Shown here one piece after another: positions 10,161-31,638 of a DNA stretch of 64,000 nt. Under the pieces are notes generated by a model. That model worked only from the letters and a program-made list of their open reading frames with translations, did not search any database and had not been told where the DNA came from. The position numbers and the translations under genes were made by a program. Position 1 is the first letter of the stretch; the number at the start of each line of letters is the position of its first letter. The stretch covers positions 1 through 64,000 of the forward strand of contig NZ_FRFA01000013.1 in assembly GCF_900143535.1 (NCBI RefSeq), in the 5' to 3' direction. The stretch comes from Tateyamaria sp. Alg231-49. Lineage in GTDB: Bacteria > Pseudomonadota > Alphaproteobacteria > Rhodobacterales > Rhodobacteraceae.

Positions 10161-10673
10161 ATGGCGAGTTCACAGAAATTCATTGCGCGCAACCGCGCGC
10201 CCAGGGTTCAGATCGAATATGATGTTGAACTGTATGGTGCAGAGAAGAAGGTGCAGCTGCCTTTCGTGATGGGCGTCATGTCCGATCTTGCGGGCAAGTC
10301 CGAAGTGCCACAACCCGGCATTGCCGATCGCAAATTCCTTGAGATCGACGTCGACAACTTTGACGAGCGTATGAAGTCCATGGCCCCTCGTGCCGCATTC
10401 ACCGTTCCCAACACGCTGAGCGGCGAAGGAAATATGGCTGTCGACATGACCTTTGAGTCCATGGACGATTTCAGCCCAGCCGCCATCGCGGCCAAGGTTG
10501 AGCCCCTTGCAGAACTGCTGGATGCGCGCACACAGCTGAGTAACCTTATGACATACATGGATGGCAAATCCGGAGCCGAAGACCTGATCGCCAAGATCAC
10601 CCAGGACCCTGCTCTGCTCAAAACCCTTGCCGCCCAACCCGCCCCCAAGGCGGACAGCGAAGATCAGGAGTAA
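10161..10673 (+). CDS. tssB: T6SS contractile sheath small subunit TssB (VipA)
   Basis: A 170-residue sheath subunit that pairs with TssC to form the contractile cylinder around the Hcp tube. Conserved TssB stretches are present: RNRAPRVQIEYDVE, LPFVMGVMSDLAGKSE, RKFLEIDVDNFDERMKSM and LSNLMTYMDGK. The ribosome-binding site is strong (AAGGAG ahead of ATG 10161). It ends three bases before tssC. Residues 1-155 are almost identical to the N-terminus of the giant fusion protein at 21895, so the cluster encodes two versions of this subunit. Confidence 0.97.
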   Translation: MASSQKFIARNRAPRVQIEYDVELYGAEKKVQLPFVMGVMSDLAGKSEVPQPGIADRKFLEIDVDNFDERMKSMAPRAAFTVPNTLSGEGNMAVDMTFESMDDFSPAAIAAKVEPLAELLDARTQLSNLMTYMDGKSGAEDLIAKITQDPALLKTLAAQPAPKADSEDQE

Positions 10674-12843: not shown

Positions 12844-13683
12844 GTGAGTGCCGAGGATCTATTAAAATCTGGTGATCTGGACGGCGCATTGGCCGCATTG
12901 CAGGACAGCATCCGCGCCGACGCCGCAAACCCTGCCCTGCGCATCTTTTTGTTCCAGTTGCTCAGTGTGCGCGGCGATTGGAAACGCGCAATCGCTCAAC
13001 TGAAGCTGTCCGCCGAGATGAACGATCTCGCCACCCACATGGCGCAGACCTATCGCGAGGGCATCATTTGTGAGGTCTACCGCGAGAAAGTGTTCTCTGG
13101 CGAAAAAGACCCCCTGATTTTTGGCGAACCAGAAGAGTGGATCGCCCTGATGGTAGAGGCGATGAAGGCCAATGTTGCGGGCAACGCAGACCAAGCCGCC
13201 GAAATCCGAGCCCGCGCGTTCGACGCCGCCCCAACCGTATCAGGCCGTCTGAACGGAGAGCCGTTCGAGTGGATTGCCGATGCAGATATGCGTCTTGGCC
13301 CGCTTCTCGAAATTGTCGTCAACGGCCGCTATTTCTGGATGCCCTTTACATCCATCGCAAAGGCGAAGTTCGAAGATCCGATTGATCTGCGTGATGCCGT
13401 CTGGACCCCTGCCGAGATCAAGTTGGCCAATGGCGGTGATATCGTTGCCCTGATCCCGACCCGATATGCCGGCACTGTTGCCGAAGGGAATGACGTTGAA
13501 AAACTGGCCCGCGCCACACAGTGGAAAGATGTGGGCGCCGATACCTATGTCGGTTTGGGTCAACGCCTGCTGACCACCGATCTGGGTGATACGGCCCTGA
13601 TGGATGTCCGCTTGCTGGAATTGGATGTCGAGATCCCCGAAGAGGCGCAAGCGCCCGAGGCGACCCAAGAGGACGAGGGCTGA
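12844..13683 (+). CDS. tagJ: T6SS accessory protein TagJ (ImpE/SciE family)
   Basis: A 279-residue accessory protein. ImpE-family TagJ binds the sheath small subunit and ClpV in some systems. The N-terminus has TPR-like helices (AEDLLKSGDLDGALAALQDSIR, then NPALRIFLFQLLSVRGDW), typical of the family. The C-terminal domain carries the ImpE pattern FEWIADADMRLGP, NGRYFWMPF and DLRDAVWTPAEIKLANG. The start is GTG 12844 behind AAGGAGAGCCA. It is followed by tssE after three bases. TagJ presence groups this system with the subset of T6SSs that carry ImpE. Confidence 0.9.
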   Translation: MSAEDLLKSGDLDGALAALQDSIRADAANPALRIFLFQLLSVRGDWKRAIAQLKLSAEMNDLATHMAQTYREGIICEVYREKVFSGEKDPLIFGEPEEWIALMVEAMKANVAGNADQAAEIRARAFDAAPTVSGRLNGEPFEWIADADMRLGPLLEIVVNGRYFWMPFTSIAKAKFEDPIDLRDAVWTPAEIKLANGGDIVALIPTRYAGTVAEGNDVEKLARATQWKDVGADTYVGLGQRLLTTDLGDTALMDVRLLELDVEIPEEAQAPEATQEDEG

Positions 13684-16068: not shown

Positions 16069-17078
16069 CGCATCTTGAGCGGCTGACAGAGGCTCCTGAA
16101 AAGTTTCACTTCTTTCACGCCTTCCGGGTGCTGGAAGCGGCGTATCCAGACTCGGCCCGCATCGGCGAGGCCCGCCGTCCGCGTGAGGAACAGATACGCT
16201 TTGGGCAGGATGCCGACTTGCGCTTTGCGCCTTCGGCTATCTCAACCTTCGAACCCCCTAAGGGTAAAAAGCCCGGGCGTATGATCAACCGTTTCTTTGG
16301 GCTGTTTGGCCCGAATGGCCCGTTGCCTCTGCACCTGACTGAATTCGCGTCACAGCGCATTCGCCATCACCGCGACCCGACCCTCGTCTCTTTTGCAGAC
16401 ATGCTCACGCACCGCATAACGACGCTGTTTTATCGCGCGTGGCGGACGGGCCAACCAGCGGCCAGTTTTGATCGTAGCGAACGCGATGATTTTGAGTCCA
16501 AGGTTTCCGCTGTCGCGGGCTATCACGCCGAACAGATGCGTGGTCAAGACGCCATGCCTGACTTGGCCAAGCGCTATTTTGCGGGCCTGTTATCCCAAGG
16601 CACAAAGAATGCCGAAGGTTTGCAATCTATTCTTCAGGCCTTCTTTGGCGCACGTGTCGAGGTGATCCAATTCGTGGGGTGCTGGCTGGACCTTGAACCG
16701 GATGATCGCTGGCAAATGGGCGCCCCTGCACAACTCGGCCGTACCGCGTCGATCGGAGAACGGGTCTGGACCCGGTCGGCCAAGTTCCGACTGCGCATCG
16801 GCCCCCTCAGCTATGATGAATATCAGCGCTTGCTGCCCGGCACCGGGTCACTGGAGCGCTTGCGCTCCATTGTGCGCAACTATGTGGGCGACGCGCTGGA
16901 CTGGGATGTGAACCTTGTGCTGCGCGCCGAAGACGTGCCCGAGCCCAAGCTGGGCCAAACAGTACGGCTGGGTCAGACCAGTTGGGTTGGAAATACAAAA
17001 AGAAAAAAGGACGCGGATGAATTGTATCTGGAGCCAAACGCCCAGACCGCGCCGATGATGGAAGGGACAACACCATGA
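16032..17078 (+). CDS. tssG: T6SS baseplate protein TssG (ImpH)
   Basis: A 348-residue partner of TssF in the baseplate wedge. It shows the ImpH landmarks: FHFFHAFRVLEAAYPDS, the IRFGQDADLRFAPSAISTFE segment, LFGPNGPLPLHLTEFA and FRLRIGPLSYDEYQRLLPG. The start at 16032 lies inside tssF, and the stop overlaps the clpV start by four bases (ATGA). Confidence 0.95.
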   Translation: MATGNRSGKDSLTHLERLTEAPEKFHFFHAFRVLEAAYPDSARIGEARRPREEQIRFGQDADLRFAPSAISTFEPPKGKKPGRMINRFFGLFGPNGPLPLHLTEFASQRIRHHRDPTLVSFADMLTHRITTLFYRAWRTGQPAASFDRSERDDFESKVSAVAGYHAEQMRGQDAMPDLAKRYFAGLLSQGTKNAEGLQSILQAFFGARVEVIQFVGCWLDLEPDDRWQMGAPAQLGRTASIGERVWTRSAKFRLRIGPLSYDEYQRLLPGTGSLERLRSIVRNYVGDALDWDVNLVLRAEDVPEPKLGQTVRLGQTSWVGNTKRKKDADELYLEPNAQTAPMMEGTTP

Positions 17079-19810
17079 CAGAAATCAGCCGCGTTGCACT
17101 ATTCGGCAAGCTGAACACGCTTGGATACAAGGCCATCGAGGGCGCCACTGTGTTCTGCAAGATGCGGGGCAACCCGTATGTCGAGGTTGTTCACTGGATG
17201 CACCAGATTCTGAACAATCAGAACAGCGATGTTCACATGATCATCAGCCATTACAAGTTGGACCCCGCCAAGATCGTAGAAGAGATCACTGCCGCCCTTG
17301 ACGCGCTACCGCGCGGTGCGAGTTCGGTCAGCGATTTGTCCTCTCACCTTGAGGACGCGATGGAGCGGGCTTGGGTGTGGGGATCCCTTCTGTATTCCTC
17401 CAATCAGGTTCGCACCGGTCACATCATTCTGGGGATGCTTGAAACGCCGAGCCTCAAGAACATTCTGACCTCGATTTCGCCGACCATTGCCAGCATCAAA
17501 CCTGACGATCTGGCTGATGACTTCCACAAGATCACCGATGGCTCACCTGAAGACGCGATGCGCCCGCAGGATGGATCAGTCACCGGTGGTGGCGCTGAAC
17601 CCGGCGAAGCCTCTGGTGCATTGAAGCCCGGACAGGACGGCGGCGAGGCGCTCGATCAGTTCTGCACGGATCTGACCGAACAGGCCCGTAACGGAGAGAT
17701 TGACCCCATCGTTGGTCGCGACGAGGAAATCCGCCAGATCGTCGACGTGCTGATGCGCCGCCGTCAGAACAACCCGATCCTGACGGGTGAGGCTGGCGTC
17801 GGGAAAACGGCTGTGGTCGAGGGATTTGCTCTGCGCATTGCCCGCGGTGATGTTCCGCCTGCTTTGCAAGACGTGCGATTGCTCGTGCTCGATGTAGGTC
17901 TGCTGCAGGCCGGAGCGTCCATGAAGGGCGAATTTGAGAACCGCCTGCGTTCAGTCATTGATGAGGTGCAGGCATCGACCACACCGATCGTGATGTTTGT
18001 CGATGAAACGCACACGCTGGTCGGGGCAGGGGGCGCTGCCGGAACCGGCGATGCGGCCAACCTGCTGAAACCTGCGCTGGCGCGCGGGACACTGCGCACA
18101 ATCGGTGCGACCACTTGGGCCGAATATAAGAAACACATTGAAAAAGACCCCGCCCTGACCCGCCGTTTCCAGGTGGTGCATGTGGAAGAGCCCGATATTC
18201 CCAAAGCGATTTTGATGATGCGTGGCATCGCGGGCATGCTCGAAAAGCACCACAAAGTGCAGGTGTTGGACGAAGGCATCGAGGCGGCCGTGACTCTGTC
18301 CGCCCGCTATATCCCCGCACGTCAGTTGCCGGATAAATCCGTCAGCCTGATCGACACCGCCTGTGCCCGCGTGGCCGTCAGTCAACATGCGGTCCCCGCC
18401 CAAGTGGACGACAGCCAGCGACGGATTGAAGCGTTGAGCACTGAGTTGGACATCATTGGCCGCGACGAAACTGCCGGCTATGACGTGGGCGATCGTCGCG
18501 CTGCCATCGAAGCAGTCAAGGCCGAAGAAGAAGAGCGTTTGGTTGGTCTCAAGGCCAACTGGGAAGCGGAAAAGGCGCTTGTCTCTGAGATCATCGATTT
18601 GCGCGCCAAACTGCGCGCTGCCGGACAGCCGGTGGATGAAACGCACACGCCAGAAGGCATCGCCGCTGATGAGGCCGCAGAGACAGAAGTCCCTGCCGAA
18701 GCTGCCATGTCGGATGCAGATCGCGACGCGATCATGGCCAAGTTGAAGGAAAAGAATGCTGCCTTGATTGAACAGCAAGGTGACAACCCACTTATCCTGC
18801 CCATCGTGGATCATCAGGCCGTTGCGTCTGTTGTCGGCGACTGGACCGGCATCCCCGTGGGTCGCATGGTCAAGGACGAGATCGAGGTCGTTCTGAACCT
18901 CGAAGAGCATCTGGCCAAGCGCGTCATCGGGCAAGACCACGCGATGAAGATGATCGCCAAGCGCATTCAGACATCACGTGCTGGCCTTGATAACCCGTCC
19001 AAACCGATTGGTGTCTTCATGCTCGCCGGGACGTCCGGTGTGGGTAAGACGGAAACCGCGCTGGCACTGGCTGAGGTTCTCTATGGTGGTGAGCAGAACG
19101 TGATCACCATCAACATGTCCGAGTATCAGGAGGCGCACACGGTGTCCTCGTTGAAAGGGGCGCCTCCGGGCTACGTCGGATACGGCGAGGGCGGCGTGCT
19201 GACCGAAGCGGTGCGGCGCAAACCATATTCCGTCGTTCTGTTGGACGAGGTTGAAAAGGCGCACCCCGACGTACACGAAATCTTTTTCCAAGTGTTCGAC
19301 AAGGGTGTGATGGAAGACGGCGAGGGCCGAGTGATCGACTTTAAGAACACGTTGATCCTGCTGACCTCGAATGCGGGCACGGACCTGATCATGGATATGT
19401 GCGCTGATCCCGAATTGATGCCTGACCCAGAGTCGATGGCCAAGGCGCTGCGCGAACCACTACTGAAAGTGTTCCCGCCTGCGTTGCTGGGCCGCTTGGT
19501 CGCCATTCCTTACTATCCGCTGTCCCCAGACATGATCGGCAAGATCACAGTGCTGCAACTCAACCGCATCAAAAAGCGGGTTGAGGCCGCGCATGGGGTC
19601 CCGTTCGAGTATTCCCAAGCCGTCGTCGACGAGATCGTGGACCGCTGTCAGGAACTGGAAAGCGGTGGCCGCATGATCGATGCCATCGTGACCAACACGA
19701 TGCTGCCCGACATCTCGGCCGAGTTCCTACGCAGGATGATGGAGGGCGGTACAATCGACAAAGTCGCCATCGACGTCGAAGACAAGGTTTTCACCTACAG
19801 TTTCGAATAA
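17075..19810 (+). CDS. tssH: T6SS sheath-recycling AAA+ ATPase TssH (ClpV)
   Basis: A 911-residue hexameric disaggregase of the ClpB class that unfolds contracted sheath. It has an N-terminal helical domain (residues about 1-160), then a first AAA+ module with Walker A GEAGVGKT near residue 238. A middle coiled-coil domain (about 420-570) follows, then a second AAA+ module with Walker A GTSGVGKT near residue 652, and LLDEVEKAHPDV as Walker B. NMSEYQEAHTVSSLKGAPPG is a typical pore-loop-flanking stretch. The length is normal for ClpV. Translation is coupled to tssG. The insert with the sodium channel and sheath fusion starts just downstream. Confidence 0.96.
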   Translation: MTEISRVALFGKLNTLGYKAIEGATVFCKMRGNPYVEVVHWMHQILNNQNSDVHMIISHYKLDPAKIVEEITAALDALPRGASSVSDLSSHLEDAMERAWVWGSLLYSSNQVRTGHIILGMLETPSLKNILTSISPTIASIKPDDLADDFHKITDGSPEDAMRPQDGSVTGGGAEPGEASGALKPGQDGGEALDQFCTDLTEQARNGEIDPIVGRDEEIRQIVDVLMRRRQNNPILTGEAGVGKTAVVEGFALRIARGDVPPALQDVRLLVLDVGLLQAGASMKGEFENRLRSVIDEVQASTTPIVMFVDETHTLVGAGGAAGTGDAANLLKPALARGTLRTIGATTWAEYKKHIEKDPALTRRFQVVHVEEPDIPKAILMMRGIAGMLEKHHKVQVLDEGIEAAVTLSARYIPARQLPDKSVSLIDTACARVAVSQHAVPAQVDDSQRRIEALSTELDIIGRDETAGYDVGDRRAAIEAVKAEEEERLVGLKANWEAEKALVSEIIDLRAKLRAAGQPVDETHTPEGIAADEAAETEVPAEAAMSDADRDAIMAKLKEKNAALIEQQGDNPLILPIVDHQAVASVVGDWTGIPVGRMVKDEIEVVLNLEEHLAKRVIGQDHAMKMIAKRIQTSRAGLDNPSKPIGVFMLAGTSGVGKTETALALAEVLYGGEQNVITINMSEYQEAHTVSSLKGAPPGYVGYGEGGVLTEAVRRKPYSVVLLDEVEKAHPDVHEIFFQVFDKGVMEDGEGRVIDFKNTLILLTSNAGTDLIMDMCADPELMPDPESMAKALREPLLKVFPPALLGRLVAIPYYPLSPDMIGKITVLQLNRIKKRVEAAHGVPFEYSQAVVDEIVDRCQELESGGRMIDAIVTNTMLPDISAEFLRRMMEGGTIDKVAIDVEDKVFTYSFE

Positions 19811-20053: not shown

Positions 20054-20992
20054 ATGGCAGCCGACGGCAACAAGAAGATGAACGCCAATTTGGAACTCAA
20101 ATGGCGTGAAGAGATGCGCAGTGATGTGATCAAATGGATCCAATCCGAAAAGGACATCATCAAGCTGTTCCCGAGAACGATCACTTACTCCAAAAAAGTC
20201 GAACTGAACCCCGACAAATGGAACGAAGGTAAATTGAAAAAGGCGCTGCCCCGTCTGTTTCGCCAAGAGTTAAAGAACTTGGCCAACCGAATGTCGGACG
20301 CCATGAAACAGGCTGAAAAGTCAAAATCACCCAAAGAGCACAACAAGCTCATCACCACTGTAAAGAATGCAATCTCCGATACCAAAAAAGAGATTATAGA
20401 GAAGTGTGACCAGCTTTTGGACGATCTGGAAACCGGTGCCGGCGATGCCAAGGCTGGCCTTGCTCTGGGTAAAAAAGCCATGGCCGAGGTCAACAAGCTG
20501 GATGCATCCAAGGTGTTCAGTGAGCCTTTGGAAATTGCGATGGGCACTGCCAAGGTCATCCACATGGCTGAAACCAAAGGAGCTGACATGGCGGCAGCGC
20601 TCGACAACGCCAAAAAGGAAATCGTTGTCGCGCTAAAATCGCTGAACGAGACTGGAAAAACTGCTCAGAGTGTCGCCAAATACCTTGCGTCCAATGGCAA
20701 GAAGATGGCCGATAACCCCAAGGGCGAAGTATCTGCCTTTGGCAAGAAGGTCATGGATAAAAGCGTTCTGGGACCTCTCCAGGTACTCGACAAGAACATC
20801 GACAAGCTTGAAGCAGCCTTGGTGTCTTATGCCAAGGACCTCAAGGACGGCAAAGTTGATGGTCATAAAGCCAAGATGCAGGCCTCCGAATTCGAGAAGA
20901 TGAAGGGGCTGCAAAAGTCGGCTGATGTTGCCGTGGCCGAAATGAAAAAGCTGCAAGTCGCCTTCAAGAAAGTCCAAAAGGACCTGAAATAG
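20054..20992 (+). CDS. Lys-rich all-helical protein of unknown function in the T6SS insert
   Basis: A 312-residue soluble protein, strikingly rich in Lys and Ala and predicted mainly helical or coiled coil (for example KEHNKLITTVKNAISDTKKE and the C-terminal VAVAEMKKLQVAFKKVQKD). No signal peptide, membrane segment or catalytic motif is visible, and I do not recognise the family. The start at ATG 20054 has AAGGGA upstream. It lies between clpV and the voltage-gated channel. Its strong positive charge contrasts with the extremely acidic fusion protein two genes later, so an electrostatic partnership is conceivable. Alternatives are a T6SS cargo protein or an assembly factor. Confidence 0.6.
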   Translation: MAADGNKKMNANLELKWREEMRSDVIKWIQSEKDIIKLFPRTITYSKKVELNPDKWNEGKLKKALPRLFRQELKNLANRMSDAMKQAEKSKSPKEHNKLITTVKNAISDTKKEIIEKCDQLLDDLETGAGDAKAGLALGKKAMAEVNKLDASKVFSEPLEIAMGTAKVIHMAETKGADMAAALDNAKKEIVVALKSLNETGKTAQSVAKYLASNGKKMADNPKGEVSAFGKKVMDKSVLGPLQVLDKNIDKLEAALVSYAKDLKDGKVDGHKAKMQASEFEKMKGLQKSADVAVAEMKKLQVAFKKVQKDLK

Positions 20993-21019: not shown

Positions 21020-21898
21020 ATGACTGACGGATCAGGCAAAACTGAAGAGCTGGCGACAGACCCTCACGATGGATCGGTGCGCGCGCGCTTGCGTGTATTC
21101 TTGGAGCAGGATCGTGTCGTAAACGCGATCATGGCGTTGATCATTTTCAACGCCATTACGCTTGGCATCAGTACGTCTGACTGGGCGCAGGCCAACTTTG
21201 GAACGTTGCTGAACATCATCGACAAGACGGTGTTGACCATCTTCGTGATCGAATTGCTGCTCAAACTGTACGCATATGGTCTGAACTTTTTCCGCAACTC
21301 GTGGAATATCTTTGATCTGTTCGTGGTCTCGGTTGGTTTGTTGCCGTCGTCGGCGGGTTTGTCTGCCTTGCGCGGTTTGCGCGTCATTCGTGCACTGCGT
21401 CTGTTGTCTGTCATTCCGCAAATGCGGGCTGTGGTTCAGGCCTTGCTGGATGCCTTGCCGGGCATGGGCGCGGTCATCGTCATGATTTCCATTGTGTTCT
21501 ACGTCTTTGGCGTGATGGCCACGATCATGTACGGCGCTGCCTTTGACGAATGGTTTGGTACGCTGGGTCGATCCCTCTATTCACTGTTCCAGATCATGAC
21601 ACTGGAATCGTGGTCCATGGGGATTGTCCGCCCAGTGATGATCGAATTTCCGATGGCATGGGCCTTTTTTGTGCCCTTCATCGTTATTACCGCCTTTTCG
21701 GTTCTTAACCTGTTCATCGGTTTGCTGGTCAACACCATGCAATCCGCGGTGGAGGCCGACACAGAGGCTGAGTTCGAACAGCTGCGCGCCCTTGTGCGCG
21801 AAGAGACCGATCAGGTTGATGCCCACGTGCTTGAGCTGAGTGCACAACTCAAAGAATTGCGCGAAGAACTAGCCAAAGCCCGGGAGGGTGGCGCATGA
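21020..21898 (+). CDS. Bacterial voltage-gated sodium channel (NaChBac/BacNav family)
   Basis: A 292-residue six-helix channel subunit that forms tetramers in the inner membrane. S1-S4 form the voltage sensor; S4 is visible as LRGLRVIRALRLLSVIPQ with Arg at every third position. S5, the pore helix and S6 follow, with the selectivity filter TLESWS (residues 194-199), the bacterial sodium-channel filter. The C-terminus is a helical coiled coil (LELSAQLKELREELAKA), as in other BacNav proteins, and the length is normal. The start ATG 21020 follows CGGAG. Its stop overlaps the start of the sheath fusion gene by ATGA, so the two are translationally coupled. A sodium channel inside a T6SS operon is unexpected. 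Confidence 0.92.
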   Translation: MTDGSGKTEELATDPHDGSVRARLRVFLEQDRVVNAIMALIIFNAITLGISTSDWAQANFGTLLNIIDKTVLTIFVIELLLKLYAYGLNFFRNSWNIFDLFVVSVGLLPSSAGLSALRGLRVIRALRLLSVIPQMRAVVQALLDALPGMGAVIVMISIVFYVFGVMATIMYGAAFDEWFGTLGRSLYSLFQIMTLESWSMGIVRPVMIEFPMAWAFFVPFIVITAFSVLNLFIGLLVNTMQSAVEADTEAEFEQLRALVREETDQVDAHVLELSAQLKELREELAKAREGGA

Positions 21899-24800
21899 GC
21901 AGTCAGAAGTTTATCGCCCGCAACCGCGCACCCCGCGTTCAGATCGAATATGACGTGGAACTGTATGGCGCGGAAAAGAAGGTGCAGTTGCCCTTCGTGA
22001 TGGGTGTGATGTCTGATCTGGCTGGCAAGTCCGAGGTGCCCCAACCTTCCATCTCTGATCGTAAGTTTCTTGAGATCGACGTCGACAACTTCGATGAACG
22101 GATGAAGTCGATGGCGCCCCGCGCCGCCTTTACTGTGCCCAACACACTGACGGGCGAGGGCAATCTGGCCGTCGATCTTACCTTTACCACGATGGACGAT
22201 TTCAGCCCGGCGGCGATTGCGGCCAATGTGGACAGCCTCAAACCCCTGCTTGAGGCCCGCACCCAACTGTCCAACCTGATGACGTACATGGATGGCAAGG
22301 CCGGTGCCGAGGCCCTGATCGAAGAAATCCTGGGCAAACCTGAACTATTGCAATGCCTGTCCGCTGGGATCAGTTCGGCAGCCGCCACAGAAAACACGCT
22401 GGACGCCCTTCGCGATGCCGCACCAGAGGACACTCCAGAAGAAGACGTCGCCGCAGATGTTCTGGCCGGGATCGAGCGCGTCGAAGACGCGCCGGAGGAG
22501 GATACTACCGCCGACGTCCTCGCAGGCATCGAGCAGGTCGAGGACGCACCGGAGGAGGACACGACCGCTGACGTCCTTGCAGGGATCGAGCAGGTCGAAG
22601 ACGCGCCGGAGGAAGATACGACCGCCGACGTCCTCGCAGGCATCGAACAGGTCGAGGAGGCACCTGAGGAGGACACGACTGCTGACGTCCTTGCAGGGAT
22701 CGAGCAGGTCGAAGACGCGCCGGAGGAAGATACGAACGCCGACGTCCTCGCAGGCATCGAACAGGTCGAGGAGGCACCTGAGGAGGACACGACTGCTGAC
22801 GTCCTTGCAGGCATCGAACAGGTCGAGGACGCGCCGGAGGAAGATACGACCGCCGACGTCCTTGCAGGCATCGAGCAGGTCGAGGATGCGCCGGAGGAGG
22901 ATACGACCGCCGACGTTCTCGCAGGCATCGAGCAGGTCGAGGATGCGCCAGAGGAAGATGCGACCGCTGATGTTCTCGCTGGCATCGAACAGGTCGAGGA
23001 CGCGCCTGAGGAGGACAAAACCGCTGACGTCCTTGCAAGCATCGAACAAGTCGAAGACGCGCCGGAAGAAGACACGGCCGCTGATGTTCTGGCTGGTATC
23101 GAACAGGTCGAGGATGCGCCGGAGGAAGACACTGCCGCTGACGTCCTCGCAAGCATCGAGCAGGTCTGGGATGCGCCGGAGGAAGACACCGCTGCTGACG
23201 TCCTTGCAGGCATCGAACAGGTCGAGGATGCACCTGAGGAAGACACGGCGGCTGATGTTCTGGCTGGTATCGAGCAAGTCGAAGACGCGCCGGAGGAAGA
23301 TACGACCGCTGATGTTCTGGCTGGTATCGAACAAGTTGAGGACGCGCCGGAAGAAGACATTGCCGCTGACGTCCTTGCAAGCATCGAGCAGGTCGAGGAT
23401 GCGCCGGAGGAAGATACGACCGCTGATGTTCTGGCTGGCATCGAACAAGTTGAGGACGCGCCGGAAGAAGACACCGCTGCTGACGTCCTCGCAAGCATCG
23501 AGCAAGTCGATGAGGCACCTGAGGAAGACAAAACCGCTGATGTCCTCGCAAGCATCGAACAGGTCGAAGAGGCGGTCGAGGACGGCGATGATCTGGACGG
23601 CATTCTGTCCGAACTGGACACGCCGCAAGACGCCGAGGATGATACCGATGACGTCGGCGATGTGCTGGCCGGGATCGAAGCTGCAACATCGGAACCCGAA
23701 GCAAAGGATGATCTGGACGACATTCTGTCAGGGATCGACACGCCGGAGGACGGAGAGGATGATGCCGACGATGTCGGCGACGTTCTGGCTGGGTTGGAAG
23801 CCGCTACTCCGGAGGAAGAGGAAGGCGAAGACCTCGATGACATTCTGTCCAGCCTCGATACGCCGGAGGATACAGAAAGCGACACTGGGAATGTCGGCGA
23901 TGTTCTGGCTGGACTGGAAGCCACCACTCCGGAGGAAGAGGATGGCGACGATCTCGATGACATCCTGTCCGGACTGGATACGCCTCAAGACGCCGAGGAT
24001 GATACCGATGATGTCGGCGATGTGCTGGCCGGGATTGAGGCTGCGAAACCCGAGGCGGACGACGATGGCGATGACCTGGATGATATCTTGTCCGGCCTCG
24101 ACACGCCCGAGGATGGCGCGGAAGAGGACGGTGACGATCTAGACGACATTCTGGGCACTCTGGAAACGGATGCTTCCGAACCCGAGGCGGAAGACGATGA
24201 CATGGACGCACTTTTGGCGAGCTTGGATGCACCTGAAGCCGATGAAGAGCCTGCGGATGAGACGGCCGATGTTCTTGCAAGTCTGGAGACTGCCGAAACG
24301 GATGCTGCGGACGACAGCGATGATCTGGACGATATTCTTGCCGGGTTGGAGACAGCCGATGCCGAGATCGAGAGCGCAGAAGATGATGTGGATGCGCTCC
24401 TCGCTGGCCTGGAAACGCCAGAAGAAGAGACTGGGGGCACAGACGATCTGAACGACATCCTTGCAGACCTTGATGGCGATGACACCGACGCTGAAGAAAG
24501 CGCCGGCGACGATCTGGATGCCGTTCTTGCCGGGTTTGAGGACAAGACCGAGGCCCCCGCAGATGGCGATGATGACCTCGATGCGTTGCTCGCCGGGCTG
24601 GACGATGACGATACCGGCGAAGCGGACGAAGGCGACGATATGGACGCGTCGCCCGCTGGGCTGGAAGGCGGCGACGACGACCTTGATGCGTTGCTCGCGG
24701 ATTTGGATGACGACGCCGAAGAGGACTCTGGTGCGGATGACGATCTGGATGCCCTCTTGGCCGGCCTGGACGACGAAACCGATGACGCGAGCAACGATGG

Positions 24801-26802
24801 CGACGACGACATGGATGCCCTGCTTGCCGAACTGGATGGCGATGATGCCAACGAAGACGCAGGCGGGGATGATGACCTTGATGCATTGCTCGCGGGACTG
24901 GACGATGACGCCGATGAAGACTCCGGTGGAGATGACGATCTGGATGCACTCTTGGCGGGTCTGGACGATGATGATGACGGGGACGCCGACGAGGATGGCA
25001 GCACGGATGGCGACAGCGCGGAAGCGGCCGAAGCACCTGCGGAACCAGCTGAACCCGTTCAATCGCCCTTTGGGCTGATCAGCCAACCCCGTCCAAGTCG
25101 CGCTGATCTGAACCGGACCAAGTTCCGCATGGCCGTCTTTGGCGACTTCACAGGCCGTGCCGCGCGCGGGTTGATGGAAACCGGGGATGCGCTGGCCAGC
25201 CGCAAGGCCATTCCGCTGGATGTGGACACCATTGACGAGATCATCGAAGGCTTTGGCACCACGCTTGTTCTACCCATCGGTGCAGATGGTGCTAGTGTCG
25301 AAGTCAAGCTGGGCGAGATGGACGACCTTCACCCGGACGAACTTTATGACAATGTCGACCTGTTCGAGGCCATTTCGGGCGTGCGCCGTCAGTTGGGCGT
25401 AGGTTCGATGGCGGATCGCGCGGTCGATCAGCTGAAATCTTGGTCAGAAACCTATTCCACCCCGATCAAACTGCCAAAGACATCGGCAGGGGCATCGATG
25501 CCCGCCAACCTCAAGCTAAGTGATTTTCAGGCCCTGATCGGTGACACCCGCGGCACCCTGACCCAAGCGACACCCGCGGATGAAATGATCGCCCGGATCA
25601 TCGGCCCGCACGTGGTCAAAGCCCCGGATGCGGGCGCTGCTGCCATGCAAGCAGCAGTGGATGAGGCGCTGAGTTCGGCGATGAACCTGATCCTTCACCA
25701 CCCCGAGTTCCAGGCGATTGAAAGCCAGTGGCGCAGCCTTGATCTGCTTGCACGGCGGATCGAAACCGACGTGAAGCTGGAAATCGTGCTTTATGATGTG
25801 TCCGCCGGGGAACTGGCAGCCGACCTGGCAGCCCAAGAAGACCTGAGCGAAAGTGGGCTCTTCAAACTGGTCACAGACGTGCTTGAACCTGAAGAAGGGG
25901 CAGGGGGTTTTTCCGCCCTGTTCGGCATGTACACCTTTGAAGAAACACCGCCCCACGCCGAACTTCTGGCCCGGATCGGACAGGTTGGGTTGCATGTGGA
26001 TGCGCCCTTCTTTTCAGCGATTTCGCCCAGCTACCTCGATACAGCCCCCGAAGATCGCCACCCGCTGGTGGCCAAGACATGGGACACGCTGCGCAAGATG
26101 CCCGAAGCGGCCTATGTTGCGCTGGCGGCTCCGCGGTTCCTGCTGCGCCAGCCGTATGGTGCCAAATCGGATCCGGTGTACGCGTTCGAATACGAAGAGT
26201 TTTCGCCGCAAGAGGGCCTGAAAGGCATGTTGTGGGCCAACCCCGTCGTGCTAACCGCGATTTTGCTTGCTGGGACATACAAGAGCGTTGGCAAGGCTGC
26301 AGGCATGGACCTTGGGTCGATGATGACCCTTGGGGACCTGCCGTTCTACTACGTCAATGACCGATATGGCGATCAGGTCGCGTTACCGTGTACCGAACGC
26401 AACCTGACAACAGACCCCGCACAGGCTACACTGACACGTGGGTACATGCCTGTGCTCTGGATGAAGGGGCGCAACGACATTCGTCTTGGATCCTTCCGTT
26501 CGCTTGGAGGAGACACGATTGCAGGGCCATGGCAGGAAGACGTGCCCAAACCGCGCAAATCGCCCAAGTCCGCTGATCTGGATGTAGAGATCGACGTATC
26601 TACTGATGACGACGACGCAGACGAGGATACATCGCTTGACGATCTGCTTTCGGGCCTTGAGGATGATGCGTCGGACGACGATGATGATGATATCTCGCTG
26701 GACGATTTGCTAGCGGGCTTTGACGACGATGATGACGACGCGTCGGGCGATGACGACGACGAGATGGATCCGGAACTTGCAGCCTTGCTGGAGGGCCTTT
26801 GA
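21895..26802 (+). CDS. Giant sheath-like fusion: TssB domain, acidic repeats, TssB-like and truncated TssC-like module
   Basis: A 1635-residue protein. Residues 1-160 are nearly identical to the local TssB, including LPFVMGVMSDLAGKSEVPQP and RKFLEIDVDNFDERMKSM. Residues 182-561 are 20 tandem copies of a 19-residue unit of the type EEDTTADVLAGIEQVEDAP. Residues about 562-1055 are irregular Asp/Glu-rich repeats around DDLDALLAGLDD. From about 1077 comes a divergent second TssB-like domain (FRMAVFGDFTGRAARG, then PLDVDTIDEIIEGF). From about 1229 to 1550 there is a TssC-like domain containing LILHHPEFQAIESQWRSLDL. Compared with the true TssC it ends after the GYMPVLWMKG region and so lacks the last 120 or so residues. 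A very acidic tail (1560-1635) closes it. I infer that it can co-assemble with the sheath through the TssB part, or forms a separate sheath-like structure. Unfused tssB and tssC also exist. Confidence 0.85.
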   Translation: MSSQKFIARNRAPRVQIEYDVELYGAEKKVQLPFVMGVMSDLAGKSEVPQPSISDRKFLEIDVDNFDERMKSMAPRAAFTVPNTLTGEGNLAVDLTFTTMDDFSPAAIAANVDSLKPLLEARTQLSNLMTYMDGKAGAEALIEEILGKPELLQCLSAGISSAAATENTLDALRDAAPEDTPEEDVAADVLAGIERVEDAPEEDTTADVLAGIEQVEDAPEEDTTADVLAGIEQVEDAPEEDTTADVLAGIEQVEEAPEEDTTADVLAGIEQVEDAPEEDTNADVLAGIEQVEEAPEEDTTADVLAGIEQVEDAPEEDTTADVLAGIEQVEDAPEEDTTADVLAGIEQVEDAPEEDATADVLAGIEQVEDAPEEDKTADVLASIEQVEDAPEEDTAADVLAGIEQVEDAPEEDTAADVLASIEQVWDAPEEDTAADVLAGIEQVEDAPEEDTAADVLAGIEQVEDAPEEDTTADVLAGIEQVEDAPEEDIAADVLASIEQVEDAPEEDTTADVLAGIEQVEDAPEEDTAADVLASIEQVDEAPEEDKTADVLASIEQVEEAVEDGDDLDGILSELDTPQDAEDDTDDVGDVLAGIEAATSEPEAKDDLDDILSGIDTPEDGEDDADDVGDVLAGLEAATPEEEEGEDLDDILSSLDTPEDTESDTGNVGDVLAGLEATTPEEEDGDDLDDILSGLDTPQDAEDDTDDVGDVLAGIEAAKPEADDDGDDLDDILSGLDTPEDGAEEDGDDLDDILGTLETDASEPEAEDDDMDALLASLDAPEADEEPADETADVLASLETAETDAADDSDDLDDILAGLETADAEIESAEDDVDALLAGLETPEEETGGTDDLNDILADLDGDDTDAEESAGDDLDAVLAGFEDKTEAPADGDDDLDALLAGLDDDDTGEADEGDDMDASPAGLEGGDDDLDALLADLDDDAEEDSGADDDLDALLAGLDDETDDASNDGDDDMDALLAELDGDDANEDAGGDDDLDALLAGLDDDADEDSGGDDDLDALLAGLDDDDDGDADEDGSTDGDSAEAAEAPAEPAEPVQSPFGLISQPRPSRADLNRTKFRMAVFGDFTGRAARGLMETGDALASRKAIPLDVDTIDEIIEGFGTTLVLPIGADGASVEVKLGEMDDLHPDELYDNVDLFEAISGVRRQLGVGSMADRAVDQLKSWSETYSTPIKLPKTSAGASMPANLKLSDFQALIGDTRGTLTQATPADEMIARIIGPHVVKAPDAGAAAMQAAVDEALSSAMNLILHHPEFQAIESQWRSLDLLARRIETDVKLEIVLYDVSAGELAADLAAQEDLSESGLFKLVTDVLEPEEGAGGFSALFGMYTFEETPPHAELLARIGQVGLHVDAPFFSAISPSYLDTAPEDRHPLVAKTWDTLRKMPEAAYVALAAPRFLLRQPYGAKSDPVYAFEYEEFSPQEGLKGMLWANPVVLTAILLAGTYKSVGKAAGMDLGSMMTLGDLPFYYVNDRYGDQVALPCTERNLTTDPAQATLTRGYMPVLWMKGRNDIRLGSFRSLGGDTIAGPWQEDVPKPRKSPKSADLDVEIDVSTDDDDADEDTSLDDLLSGLEDDASDDDDDDISLDDLLAGFDDDDDDASGDDDDEMDPELAALLEGL
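22438..23577 (+). repeat. 20 tandem 57-base coding repeats
   Basis: Twenty in-register 57-base units, with no indels, encode the 19-residue acidic repeat of the sheath fusion. Units differ mostly at synonymous positions, with a few changes such as G to S in VLASIE, or a Trp in one copy (EQVWDAP). This indicates expansion by unequal exchange under selection for the protein sequence. The array is likely to vary in copy number between strains. Confidence 0.95.
23578..25050 (+). repeat. Irregular acidic DDLD-type repeat region
   Basis: Degenerate repeats built on DDLDDIL-GLDTPED and DDDLDALLAGLDDD, of variable length, inside the fusion gene. They are rich in GAT/GAC/GAA/GAG codons. They are distinct from the regular 57-base array but share the D-L-L-A-G-L/I core, so the two probably have a common origin. 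Confidence 0.8.
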
Positions 26803-27134: not shown

Positions 27135-29249
27135 ATGGCAGAAGGTGATCTTGAACTTGAGGGCCGTAAGGTCTGGATGGAGGGCACGTATTCCTCCAAA
27201 CCGGTCAACCTGAAAAACGCCCGAGTGATCGAAGGTCTGAGCATGCTCACCGAGACCACGATCGAGTTCCTTTCCTCAGACGAGGCGCTGGACTTGCAGG
27301 ACATGCTGGGCTCGACCATCCACTTGTGCCAAAAAGACGAGGAAGACAAAGACCGGTTCTTTACCGGTATGTGTGTCTCTGTTGACTATGTCGGCCTTTA
27401 TCAGGGCCTGTCTCATTTCGTCGCCCAAGTCCGCCCTTGGTTGTGGTTCCTCACCCGCACGATTGAAAACCGCGTTTTTCAGGAGATGAACGTTCTTGAT
27501 ATCATTCAGGAAGTCATGTCGCCCTACGGGTTCTGGTCAGACGTCAAGAAAGAAACGACGGCAACCTACAAGCCTCGCACTTACTGTGTGCAATACAATG
27601 AGACGGATTTCGACTTCATCTCGCGCCTGATGGAAGAAGAGGGGATTTACTACTTCTTTGTGCAGGACGAGAAAAAGCTGAAAATGGTGCTGGCAGATGG
27701 CATCAGTGCGCACAAACCAACCCCAAAGATCAAGGAAGGCAAGATCGACTTTGCCTTCAAGGAAGGCGGCGAGTACCGCCGCGACAACGACCACGTTTTT
27801 GACTGGAGCGAAACCACCGCGGTGACGACAGCAAAGGTCACGCTTGAAGATTACGATTTTGACCAGCCAAAGAGCCAATTGAAAAAGGCCAAGTCGATTC
27901 CAAAGGGGGATCACTCCAGAAAGTCCAAGTTCGAACACTACGTGTATCCCGGTCACAACAGACCGGAGACCCACAATGTGGACGATGCCTTTGTCAAAGT
28001 GCGGATGGAATCTGAAGCGGTGCGTCACAAGCTGTCCCGCGGTGCCGGGAACGTGCGCACATTGGGGGTCGGTCAGACGTTCAAGTTGAAAGACCATCCA
28101 CGCAAATCCAACAACGTCGACTATCTGGTCACACGGGCCGTCCATCATTTGCAGATCGAAACCGACTACGAGGATGCAGAGACCAAAAAACCGCTGTTTC
28201 CCAGCACGCTCCCTGTCGATGAGGAAAACTCTGACACCTACCGCATCGTCTTTGATGTGATCCCCAAGACCGAGCAATTCCGCGCCCCGCAGGTCACTCC
28301 GTGGCCCCGGTCCATGGGCCTGCAAACAGCCGTTGTCACCGGCCCTTCGGGCGAGGAAATCTACACCGACAAATATGGCCGCATCAAAGTGCAGTTCCAC
28401 TGGGACAGGCTGGGTTCGAAGGACGAAAATACCACCTGCTGGGTACGCTGCGTAATGCCGTGGACAGGCAAGAACTGGGGTATGATCTCTGTCCCCCGCA
28501 TCGGGCAGGAGGTCGTGATCCAGTTCGAGGAAGGCGACCCTGATCGCCCCATCTGCACGGGCATGCTGTATAATGCAGACACGATGCCGCCTTACGCTCT
28601 GGATGCAAACAAGACTCAGACTGGGATCAAGACCCGCTCAAGCAAGGATGGTGCAGCCAGCAACTATAACGAGCTGGTCTTCGAGGACAAAAAGGATGAG
28701 GAATTCATCCGCATGCACTCGGAAAAGGACTACTTTCAGACTATCGAGAACAATGCGGTCGTGGAAATCGGGTTGGAAAAGAAGGATCCTGGCGATCTGA
28801 CCCAGACCATTCACCACACCAAGACCGAGACGATCAAAACTGGTGACCACATCTTTACTGTCGAAGAGGGCAACCAAGAGATTTCGATCAAGACGGACCA
28901 TACCGAGAAAATCGAAGGCAAAGCGACCCAAACGATCACCGAAGACTATACCCAGACCATTGAAAGTGGAGACGTCACCCGAAATGTTGACAGCGGTAGC
29001 GAGACGTTCACCATCGCTTCAGGGGATTACACGGTTGACGTTTCGTCAGGTTCAATTGCCATAACAGCGGCGGTAGAAATCTCGCTGTCGGTGGGCAGCA
29101 ATTCGATTGTCATTGATAACAGTGGCGTTTCCATAAGCGGTATGATGATCACCATTTCAGGCGAAGCAAGCGCCGATATGGATTCACCCTTGACGACAGT
29201 ATCGGGGGAGCTCGTGACGATTGACGGCACCTCCACGATGATCAACTGA
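27135..29249 (+). CDS. vgrG: T6SS spike protein VgrG (TssI)
   Basis: A 704-residue trimeric spike that is the gp27-gp5 equivalent. The gp27-like part (residues about 20-380) contains SRLMEEEGIYYFFVQ. The gp5 OB-fold has DKYGRIKVQFHWDR near residue 413 and PRIGQEVVIQFEEGDPDRP. The C-terminus is a repetitive beta-prism (Thr/Glu-rich, then DVSSGSIAITAAVEISLSVG), with no obvious toxin domain beyond it. AAGGAG precedes the start. The DUF6931-like and PAAR genes follow, so this is a spike-loading module. Confidence 0.96.
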   Translation: MAEGDLELEGRKVWMEGTYSSKPVNLKNARVIEGLSMLTETTIEFLSSDEALDLQDMLGSTIHLCQKDEEDKDRFFTGMCVSVDYVGLYQGLSHFVAQVRPWLWFLTRTIENRVFQEMNVLDIIQEVMSPYGFWSDVKKETTATYKPRTYCVQYNETDFDFISRLMEEEGIYYFFVQDEKKLKMVLADGISAHKPTPKIKEGKIDFAFKEGGEYRRDNDHVFDWSETTAVTTAKVTLEDYDFDQPKSQLKKAKSIPKGDHSRKSKFEHYVYPGHNRPETHNVDDAFVKVRMESEAVRHKLSRGAGNVRTLGVGQTFKLKDHPRKSNNVDYLVTRAVHHLQIETDYEDAETKKPLFPSTLPVDEENSDTYRIVFDVIPKTEQFRAPQVTPWPRSMGLQTAVVTGPSGEEIYTDKYGRIKVQFHWDRLGSKDENTTCWVRCVMPWTGKNWGMISVPRIGQEVVIQFEEGDPDRPICTGMLYNADTMPPYALDANKTQTGIKTRSSKDGAASNYNELVFEDKKDEEFIRMHSEKDYFQTIENNAVVEIGLEKKDPGDLTQTIHHTKTETIKTGDHIFTVEEGNQEISIKTDHTEKIEGKATQTITEDYTQTIESGDVTRNVDSGSETFTIASGDYTVDVSSGSIAITAAVEISLSVGSNSIVIDNSGVSISGMMITISGEASADMDSPLTTVSGELVTIDGTSTMIN

Positions 29250-30174: not shown

Positions 30175-31638
30175 ATGGCGATAACACTGCGCTTTCAGTC
30201 TACCGGTAGCATTCCGGGTAATGGCGATCCCATCGTGATGAATGGTCCAAGTCTGACGCTTGGCCGTGGCAACGAGAACGATGTTGTGTTGCCTGATCCC
30301 AACCGCGAGTTGTCCAAACGGCATTGCGCGATTGAGGATCACAACGGCAACGTGATCGTGGTCGACTTTTCGACCAACGGCACATTTTTGAACTATGGCA
30401 AGCTCGCCCTTGGGGCGACCCCAACGCCTCTGAACGACGGCGATATCCTGTCCGTCGGCCCTTATGAAATTCTGGTCAGTATCGCTTCACAGGATACCGG
30501 GGACTTTTTGGCTGACCCGGTGGCTGACACGCCAGTGTCGCCCGGCTTTGCGACCAATGCGCCCAGCAATGCAGATTTGCTGGATGCCCCGGGCGATGGC
30601 GGCGATTTTCTTGACGATTTGCTGGTGGGTCGCGGCGCGCCTCAGGGTCCCGGTGTTATGCAACGGGACGAAGTGGGTGACGACGGGCTACTGCCGCCTC
30701 TTGGCGAAGAAGAAGGCCTTTTGCCCCCCGCCGATGATCCTTTTGCAGGGCAAGGAGCCAGCGCAGGATCAAATCACGCAGCAGGCCAGGACCACTTTTC
30801 AGTTCCCAGACATGCTGCTGCGTCATCATCTGCAATCCCAGATGACTGGGACGATGACTTCTTGTCGCCGACACCGCCTGCGGCTGCCGCCGTTCCGAAT
30901 GATCCCTTTGCCGCTCCGATGGAGCCTGCACCGATGCCGCCCGCTGCCGCGCCGCCTGCTGGGCGGGCACATGTGGCCCCTTCGCCGATGCCTGTTTCAC
31001 CAATGCAGCCGCCGATGCAGCAACCGCCCCAAGCCGCACCTGCGGCCGTGGGTGGGCCAGATGCCGCGTCGCGTGCGTTTCTGTCAGAATTGGGTGCGGG
31101 TTCCCTTGGCGTTCCAGATCATGACCTTCCCGCCACGATGGGCAAACTTGGGACTGTGCTGCGCATCGCCATTGAGGGTCTGCGCGAAATCCTGATGACC
31201 CGCGAGTCCATCAAATCCGAATTCCGCATTGAAAAGACCATGTTGCAACTGGGCGGGAACAACCCGCTTAAATTCTCGCGCAGCCCGGATGAGGCGATCG
31301 AGGCGATGGTTCTGCCCACGCAACGTGGCTATGTTGAGGCGACCGAGGCGGCCAGCGAAGCCCTGAAAGACATCAAGGCCCACGAAGTAGCGATGCTGAC
31401 AGGTATGGAAGCCGCGCTCAAAGGTATCCTCAAAAAACTAGACCCCGCTGTGCTCGAAGAGAAGATCAGTGCGGATAAGAGTCTGAGTGGAATGCTGAAA
31501 AGCCGGAAAGCCCGTTATTGGGAAATCTACGAAAGCATGTATACAGAAATCTCAGACCAGGCTGAAAACGACTTTCAAGAGCTCTTTGCCAAGGAATTCG
31601 CCCGCGCCTACCAAGAGCAACTGGACAATTTGAAATGA
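30175..31638 (+). CDS. tagH: TagH-type FHA domain protein of the type VI secretion system (copy 2)
   Basis: A 487-residue FHA scaffold, second in this cluster. The FHA domain spans residues about 5-105 (LGRGNENDVVL, SKRHCAI, VDFSTNGTFLN). The linker is Pro/Ala-rich and carries FLDDLLVGRGAP and IPDDWDDDFLSP, resembling the IPDDFDDDLLGL of the first copy. The C-terminal 190 residues form the TagH domain (GNNPLKFSRSPDEAIEAM; KARYWEIYESMYTE). Having two TagH proteins may allow different phospho-partners. It lies in the operon between PAAR and tssK. Confidence 0.9.
   Translation: MAITLRFQSTGSIPGNGDPIVMNGPSLTLGRGNENDVVLPDPNRELSKRHCAIEDHNGNVIVVDFSTNGTFLNYGKLALGATPTPLNDGDILSVGPYEILVSIASQDTGDFLADPVADTPVSPGFATNAPSNADLLDAPGDGGDFLDDLLVGRGAPQGPGVMQRDEVGDDGLLPPLGEEEGLLPPADDPFAGQGASAGSNHAAGQDHFSVPRHAAASSSAIPDDWDDDFLSPTPPAAAAVPNDPFAAPMEPAPMPPAAAPPAGRAHVAPSPMPVSPMQPPMQQPPQAAPAAVGGPDAASRAFLSELGAGSLGVPDHDLPATMGKLGTVLRIAIEGLREILMTRESIKSEFRIEKTMLQLGGNNPLKFSRSPDEAIEAMVLPTQRGYVEATEAASEALKDIKAHEVAMLTGMEAALKGILKKLDPAVLEEKISADKSLSGMLKSRKARYWEIYESMYTEISDQAENDFQELFAKEFARAYQEQLDNLK

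What the first reader, a model, noticed from the sequence alone, without database searches (positions are those of the whole stretch)
21895..26802. Natural TssB-acidic repeat-TssB/TssC fusion protein alongside ordinary tssB and tssC
One gene encodes a near-copy of the local TssB (residues 1-160) joined by 20 regular repeats and a long Asp-rich region to a divergent TssB-like plus TssC-like module that lacks the last part of TssC. Direct comparison shows the N-terminal domain almost identical to the separate tssB over its first 100 residues. This implies recent duplication or strong selection to fit the same sheath, and the long acidic arm would then be displayed on or inside the sheath. Known sheath subunits are short and unfused. 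I suggest it decorates, caps or signals from the sheath, or forms a separate sheath-like structure.
Basis: partly seen in the sequence, partly recalled or inferred. Interest (0 to 1): 0.92.

Follow-up and report, generated by a model that had tools for sequence, protein, structure and literature searches.

The report
Known roseobacter T6SS sheath fusion (TssCL)
This marine bacterium carries a giant relative of the proteins that form the contractile sheath of its toxin-injecting machine; the fusion was already described in 2022, but its core looks like an old sheath-like protein with a conserved tail, later tethered to a copy of a real sheath subunit by a long acidic arm.

Summary
ORF 21895-26802 (1635 aa) is intact: a TssB domain (94 of 102 residues identical to local TssB), 20 repeats of exactly 19 aa, an Asp-rich stretch, a divergent TssB'-TssC' module without TssC's last domain (VipB_2), and an acidic tail. 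It is not new: Suria et al. 2022 (PMC9515649) named it TssCL. Nor is it a recent duplication: 25 of 43 fourfold-degenerate sites differ.

What I add. The TssB'-TssC' half is a third sheath lineage, apart from TssC and from TssC40/ImpD-type proteins. It exists without the N-terminal TssB and arm in Planctomycetota, Verrucomicrobiota, Acetobacteraceae and some Rhodobacterales. Of the best 80 loci (of 540 found), 79 end in a helix-type pattern, typically (M/I)D(P/A)(E/D)LAALLxxL; the other is cut by its contig end. The arms carry related motifs: 312 strict hits in 50 linkers against 1.2 in shuffles. A sodium-channel gene lies directly upstream in 48 of 69 uncut loci.

Best reading: a sheath-anchored, multivalent docking hub. 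The TssB domain enters the sheath; arm and tail bind an unidentified partner. Inferred, confidence 0.45.

The parts
21895..26802 (+). tssCL-type gene, 1635 aa; ATGA overlap with the channel gene
21895..22374 (+). N-terminal TssB domain (residues 1-160), including a TagJ-binding-type N-terminal peptide
   Evidence: Pfam/NCBIfam; identity; retained TssB columns and TagJ contact residues
22453..23574 (+). 20 x 19-aa acidic repeats (ADVLAGIEQVEDAPEEDTT type); they match the 5-residue core motif (VLAGI) but not the strict 9-residue motif
23575..25059 (+). Asp-rich array with 14 strict motifs of the DLDALLAGL/DLDDILSGL type
25120..25452 (+). TssB' part of the C-terminal module (about residues 1076-1186); alignment to TssB begins near TssB residue 35
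   Evidence: alignments, model
25651..26502 (+). TssC' part: VipB N-terminal domain only (residues 1253-1536)
26557..26799 (+). acidic tail with three predicted short helices (residues 1582-1588, 1602-1607, 1626-1634), ending EMDPELAALLEGL; two 5-residue core matches, no strict 9-residue match
21020..21898 (+). bacterial voltage-gated sodium-channel-type gene, filter TLESWS
   Evidence: Pfam Ion_trans; PDB sequence search; conservation
20054..20992 (+). unknown lysine-rich protein between clpV and the channel (312 aa)
10161..10673 (+). ordinary tssB
10677..12170 (+). ordinary tssC with VipB and VipB_2
12844..13683 (+). tagJ/impE
17075..19810 (+). clpV/tssH, Arg6/Asp87 (P. aeruginosa ClpV1-like class)
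27135..29249 (+). vgrG/tssI
30175..31638 (+). tagH (FHA), with linker segment GGDFLDDLLVG

Best explanation
The gene is a TssCL-family protein. Its C-terminal half is an old single-chain TssB'-TssC' pseudo-protomer that lacks TssB's N-terminal segment and TssC's C-terminal VipB_2 domain (the elements that, as recalled from published sheath structures, interlace neighbouring subunits) and carries a disordered acidic tail ending in a helix-forming motif. In Rhodobacterales and some Rhizobium/Roseibium relatives this protein was joined to a true TssB and a long disordered polyanionic arm. I propose that the TssB domain enters the sheath at low stoichiometry in place of ordinary TssB (pairing with TssC and able to bind TagJ), so that arm and tail hang on the sheath as a multivalent docking array. 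The array gathers a partner that recognises the D-L-D-A-L-L-A-G-L / D-P-E-L-A-A-L-L type of motif. The fusion raises the partner's local concentration at the sheath, probably to tune assembly, firing or recycling. Shown: architecture, separate lineage of the module, motif conservation, selection on the TssB domain. Inferred: order of events, incorporation, the partner, the effect.
For: N-domain keeps 89 of 92 TssB-invariant columns; the 21 N-domains tested keep 83-90 of 92. The 8 TagJ-contact residues of P. aeruginosa HsiB1 (PMC4239648, passages) are complete in 39 of 50 N-domains of the named set (two of the 11 misses are cut at the 5' end), in 16 of 21 of the family set, and in 0 of 21 short forms. 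Module: AlphaFold2 pTM 0.87 and TssC matches; no VipB_2; TssB alignment starts near residue 35. 14 modules form one clade (100/100) against 35 TssC-type sequences. Loose terminal pattern in 79 of 80 loci; 133 strict motif hits in 80 tails against 0.24 in shuffles, 70 of 80 tails with at least one; 312 in 50 linkers against 1.2, 47 of 50 linkers with at least one. AlphaFold2 of module plus tail gives three short helices, at the motif-like segments, in an otherwise low-confidence tail (last helix block pLDDT 73).
Against: No partner is identified and incorporation into the sheath is untested. 21 of 80 loci lack the TssB domain and arm, some of them apparently by loss, and the N-domain is degenerate in L119 (31% identity), so anchoring is not essential to the module. 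The window's 20 repeats and its own tail have no strict motif match, only core matches; 3 of 50 linkers and 10 of 80 tails have none. The motif was derived from tails of the same sequences, and tandem copies inflate the linker count. A simple motif in an acidic region could act through charge alone.
Confidence: 0.45

Rival explanations
1. Specialised sheath-end protomer: the TssB'-TssC' body, unable to interlace further, caps or starts the sheath (limits its length or forms an end ring), as minor sheath paralogues do in extracellular contractile systems (recalled).
For: VipB_2 and the TssB N-terminal segment are missing from the module; weak Foldseek matches to sheath subunits in baseplate, neck and cap reconstructions of other contractile systems (ranks 10-19, E 1e-3 to 3e-2).
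Against: Those matches reflect the general sheath fold. A cap explains neither the array nor the tail motif. Eight sampled loci of the same T6SS subtype have no module.
Confidence: 0.2
2. Recycling factor: the second TagJ-binding N-terminus recruits TagJ and ClpV to the sheath, or acts as a decoy for them.
For: TagJ peptide complete in 39 of 50 N-domains; ClpV has Arg6 and Asp87 in 27 of 29 loci of the family set and 57 of 57 of the named set (9 of 17 in the module-less set), the class in which TagJ is proposed to link TssB to ClpV (PMC4239648, passages); the module follows clpV directly in L173, L175, L176 and L177.
Against: TagJ was dispensable for Hcp secretion in Agrobacterium (table passage in PMC3702570). 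The 21 short forms lack the peptide. The charged ClpV groove argues against array helices docking there as VipB does in V. cholerae.
Confidence: 0.18
3. Channel-coupled switch: the sodium channel encoded directly upstream admits ions that are sensed by the polyanionic arm, linking membrane state to firing.
For: Channel directly upstream in 48 of 69 uncut loci; filter TLESWS in 48 of the 49 loci with a channel hit, the other being the divergent L170 channel, which is not upstream; alignment-based gaps within 5 bases in at least 40; 25 of 29 module-bearing loci of the family set against 1 of 8 module-less loci of the same T6SS subtype.
Against: 6 of 48 long and 15 of 21 short forms have no adjacent channel; L183 has the channel without the module; the pattern is clade-structured. 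Nothing shows that the arm senses ions.
Confidence: 0.06
4. The array and N-domain are largely dispensable elaboration around a functional module and tail.
For: Linker length 171-1211 aa with different repeat units between species; repeated presence and absence of the N-domain on the module tree; degenerate N-domain in L119.
Against: Motif excess in linkers and strong constraint on the N-domain.
Confidence: 0.11

Closest known systems
TssCL of roseobacter squid symbionts (Suria et al. 2022, PMC9515649)
   Same: Two VipA domains and one VipB domain on one chain (1684 aa there, 1635 here); first VipA highly similar to local TssB; divergent second VipA and VipB; ordinary tssB and tssC in the same cluster.
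   Different: Nothing essential: the window protein is a member. The passages and the one section I read do not mention the arrays, the missing VipB_2, the tail motif, short forms or the channel; they report no occurrence outside Alphaproteobacteria.
TssB / VipA (TIGR03358, PF05591)
   Same: N-domain passes the TssB model and keeps most of its conserved residues.
   Different: Here it heads a giant fusion; residues 133-160 diverge (14 of 28 identical).
TssC / VipB (TIGR03355, PF05943 + PF18945)
   Same: TssC' fold and N-terminal-domain homology.
   Different: Scores below the TssC cut-off, lacks VipB_2, fused to TssB', separate clade.
Agrobacterium TssC40 / ImpD (PMC3702570)
   Same: A second TssC homologue in the same cluster with a non-redundant role.
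   Different: TssC40-type proteins sampled here align over nearly the whole of TssC and fall outside the module clade.
FliM/FliY EIDALL motif (PMC9126983, passages)
   Same: Short acidic helix of similar sequence (E/D-I/L-D-A-L-L).
   Different: A resemblance only; no CheY-type partner was looked for or tested.

Membership tests
TssCL (Suria et al. 2022) | two VipA domains plus one VipB domain in one protein | tested here: met
   PF05591 in 2 stretches, PF05943 in 1
TssCL (Suria et al. 2022) | first VipA highly identical to the cluster's TssB | tested here: met
   118 of 132 residues
TssCL (Suria et al. 2022) | ordinary tssB and tssC kept in the same cluster | tested here: met
TssCL (Suria et al. 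2022) | limited to Alphaproteobacteria | tested here: inconclusive
   the 50 long forms among the best 80 loci are all alphaproteobacterial; the module alone also occurs in Planctomycetota and Verrucomicrobiota
TssC/VipB | TIGR03355 score above cut-off | tested here: not met
   133.8 vs 271.5
TssC/VipB | C-terminal VipB_2 domain | tested here: not met
   no hit; present in local TssC
TssC40/ImpD | groups with TssC40-type second TssC | tested here: not met
   module clade 100/100 apart from C_L095_8519, C_L098_9035, C_L099_9687; these were taken as TssC40-type by tandem position, not by direct comparison with Atu4340
TssB/VipA (N-domain) | TIGR03358 score above cut-off | tested here: met
   196.3 vs 97.25 for the whole protein, best stretch 4-158
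TssB/VipA (N-domain) | assembles with TssC into a sheath | not testable with these tools
   needs biochemistry or a complex model

The most novel reading that the evidence does not exclude
A third lineage of sheath proteins (TssB'-TssC' single chain, without VipB_2, with a conserved terminal helical motif) exists across phyla and works at the T6SS sheath by docking a still unknown T6SS partner. TssCL amplified that docking motif into a sheath-borne multivalent array. Related acidic LxxLL-like segments in TagH linkers and TssC N-termini may engage the same partner.
Probability: 0.3. Interest if true: 0.75.

Novelty: new member of a known kind. Interest (0 to 1): 0.48.

Why it matters
T6SS sheaths are usually described as two-protein tubes. 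TssCL has had a name since 2022; the sections I read give it no function. Showing that its core is a separately inherited sheath-like protein with a conserved terminal motif turns an odd fusion into a testable question: what binds the motif, and what does it do at the sheath? Short natural forms (open frames of about 550-740 residues) would be far easier to handle than the 1635-residue repeat protein.

Tried and rejected
Recent duplication of tssB: rejected for the window (25 of 43 fourfold sites differ; codon-position table). In L062 (89% nt, 82% third-position identity over the first ~100 codons) and L050 (87%, 79%) a later conversion or capture is possible. N and B domains are not separate clades in the tree (4 label changes, 4 of 39 inner branches well supported), so one or several origins cannot be decided.

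ImpD/TssC40 origin: rejected by tree. The tool warns that the long ctl_L189 branch meets the module branch; the module clade itself has 100/100 support.

Array as ClpV-groove ligand, as for VipB in V. cholerae: disfavoured, because the window ClpV has Arg6 and Asp87, the residues that block that groove in P. aeruginosa (PMC4239648, passages).

Pfam on tails and arrays at a loose threshold: no credible hit; transposase- and integrase-associated hits on the repeats look like low-complexity artefacts.

Frame or assembly artefact: rejected; intact long frames in two closed plasmids.

Phage origin: the 5 phage-record matches cover at most 53% of the module at about 28-33% identity.

Literature: searches. 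The name TssCL occurs in one paper of that library. I found no description of the short forms, tail motif or channel link in those listings and in the passages I opened; subscription papers and preprints are not held.
Full report
Observation. The frame 21895-26802 on the + strand is open for 1635 codons. Pfam finds T6SS_VipA in two stretches and the VipB N-terminal domain, but not VipB_2, which the ordinary TssC at 10677-12170 has. The first 102 residues share 94 with the local TssB, and the first 132 share 118; the next 28 share 14. The repeat array has 20 units at exactly 19 residues (DNA period 57). The linker is 36-43% acidic and 1% basic. The genome has two VipB places, both in this cluster.

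Not new, and not recent. Suria et al. 2022 (PMC9515649; [quoted passage not shown] The window protein is a member. They suggest a fusion of sheath genes as a more recent event in certain Alphaproteobacteria. In the window the TssB copy is old: 25 of 43 fourfold-degenerate sites differ and only 54 of 102 third positions agree over the stretch with 94 of 102 identical residues. Purifying selection, not recency, explains the likeness: 89 of 92 columns invariant in 21 separate TssBs are kept here, and 83-90 of 92 across the 21 fused copies. Of those 92 columns, 63 are invariant in all 42 sequences.

Distribution. With the C-terminal module (P0004, residues 1065-1564) as query, 72 of 295 genomes of the family gave a match; 32 of them, the window included, have a homologue at 50-100% identity; the best match of the other 40 is at 38% or less, over the TssC part. 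In 385 genomes of the class the one further full-length relative that stood out was G441 (33% identity); four small-genome matches over both parts are joined TssB-TssC frames or look so from length (two checked). Of these 80, 50 carry an N-terminal TssB and a linker of 171-1211 aa, 21 are frames not cut at the 5' end and without it, and 9 are cut at the 5' end so that the form is unknown. Two of the 50 (L111, L134) are also cut within the N-domain, and one of the 21 (L174) is cut at the 3' end. The 21 include Planctomycetota, Verrucomicrobiota (L171), Rhodospirillales/Acetobacteraceae and several Rhodobacterales. TssF is present in 6 of 7 genomes checked behind such loci (not in that of L180), so these hosts mostly have a T6SS.

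Ancestry of the halves. A tree of the TssC-like part puts 14 modules in one clade (100/100) against 35 other TssC-type sequences, among them three second TssC proteins in TssC40-like tandem position (the tool warns of meeting long branches). On the module tree all ten rows from Planctomycetota, Verrucomicrobiota and Rhodospirillales/Acetobacteraceae are without the N-domain; long forms appear within the Rhodobacterales-type group, with several switches (short label: 6 changes, at least 5 forced; long label 12, inflated by 9 unknown rows). The root is a midpoint, and the orphan from G441 has a very long branch. I infer that the TssB'-TssC' protein came first and that TssB plus arm was added in Alphaproteobacteria and lost again more than once; repeated gain is not excluded.

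Structure. AlphaFold2 on 32 aligned modules gave pLDDT 84 and pTM 0.87. All 9 Foldseek matches at E<=0.001 are T6SS sheath entries, best 5n8n_B at 1.1e-16; a chain of TssB size (5urw_1A) appears at E 0.36. By sequence, the 8 PDB matches below 1e-14 are TssC/VipB-type; the ninth, at 0.074, is unrelated. The alignment of the TssB' part begins near TssB residue 35, so the segment that binds TagJ in P. aeruginosa (PMC4239648, passages) and the N-terminal strand have no counterpart in the module. VipB_2 is missing too. As recalled from published sheath structures, these are the elements that interlace neighbouring subunits. The N-domain supplies the first of them again.

Motif. Tails of the 80 loci hold 133 matches to a strict nine-residue motif against 0.24 expected in residue shuffles; 70 of 80 tails have at least one, 10 have none. 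The very end fits a looser helix pattern in 79 of 80; the exception, L174, is cut by its contig end. In the 50 linkers there are 312 strict matches against 1.2; 47 of 50 have at least one. In the window, the strict motif occurs 14 times, all between residues 606 and 1023; the 20 regular repeats and the tail have none. A five-residue core that also fits the repeats (VLAGI) occurs 41 times in the window linker, shuffle mean 0.6, maximum 4 of 500 shuffles, and twice in the tail. The motif was derived from the tails of these same sequences, so the tail count is partly circular, and tandem copies inflate the linker count. AlphaFold2 on module plus tail (39 sequences) predicts three short helices in the tail, at SLDDLLSGL, SLDDLLAGF and DPELAALLEGL, between segments with pLDDT below 50; the block holding the last has mean 73. 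TagH linkers (GGDFLDDLLG type) and TssC N-termini ([DE]FxxLL type) have similar segments, but also in loci without the module, and some TagH have none.

Neighbourhood. The order clpV - (unknown protein) - ion channel - TssCL - vgrG - DUF6931 - PAAR - tagH is widely kept. The channel is of the bacterial voltage-gated sodium-channel type (best PDB match 5hvx, 7.6e-77). It is directly upstream in 42 of 48 long and 6 of 21 short uncut loci. In the family set it is present in 25 of 29 module loci with upstream coverage (L039, L040 and L051 left out for lack of it; L064 holds no module). Of the 40 module-less genomes I sampled 20: it is present in 1 of 8 of the same T6SS subtype and 0 of 12 of other subtypes, some of the latter possibly cut short. 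The one exception, L183, has the channel and no module. Long forms without the channel have linkers of 171-427, those with it 350-1211, but the former fall in few clades, so I draw nothing from it.

Annotation. In two closed plasmids the listed start of this gene lies far inside: Ruegeria conchae M340 (listed 7336, open frame from 6598, 1382 aa) and Leisingera sp. S132 (listed 4006, open frame from 2668, 1690 aa). Both full frames begin with the TssB N-terminus and overlap the channel gene. These are the only two records I opened; database entries may hide the N-terminal TssB.

Mechanism. The best account is a sheath-anchored docking hub (confidence 0.45). Joining the module to a near-perfect TssB suggests where the module works: at the sheath. 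The conserved tail motif suggests how: by binding a partner; the array would multiply that binding. The partner, the incorporation and the effect are not shown. The cap/initiator, the TagJ-ClpV recycling role, dispensable elaboration and the channel-coupled switch remain possible in falling order.

Verdict. Known protein, accurately noticed again, wrongly thought unprecedented and recent. The added value is the trans-phylum form without TssB and arm, the separate lineage and the conserved terminal motif.

Noticed in passing
L096:1449-3389 (+) and L097:4803-6731 (-): In two small-genome Alphaproteobacteria a TssB and a near-full-length TssC lie in one uninterrupted frame (647 and 643 aa): an apparent natural one-chain sheath subunit.
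   Followed up: partly
L094:8029-9558 (-): Orphan TssB'-TssC' module (510-aa frame, 31% identity) with no other T6SS gene matched in the 19 kb fetched, beside a methyltransferase-like frame; no tail motif in its sequence.
   Followed up: partly
L201:6598-10746; L202:2668-7740: Listed starts of TssCL in two closed plasmids omit the N-terminal TssB domain.
   Followed up: yes
L170, L179: Planctomycete short forms sit beside TPR proteins, in L179 a TPR-methyltransferase and a TPR-glycosyltransferase-41 type protein.
   Followed up: no
window 20054-20992: Lysine-rich protein of unknown family between clpV and the channel; recognisable relatives in only part of the loci.
   Followed up: no
window 30175-31638 and relatives: Many TagH linkers carry a GGDFLDDLLG-type segment resembling the array motif, also without TssCL.
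   Followed up: partly
window 800-5275: 1491-aa frame upstream of tssA without Pfam hit; its start looks like a secreted, repeat-rich Asn/Thr protein.
   Followed up: no
L119 module gene: N-terminal TssB domain is degenerate and shortened (31% identity), while module and tail are kept.
   Followed up: partly
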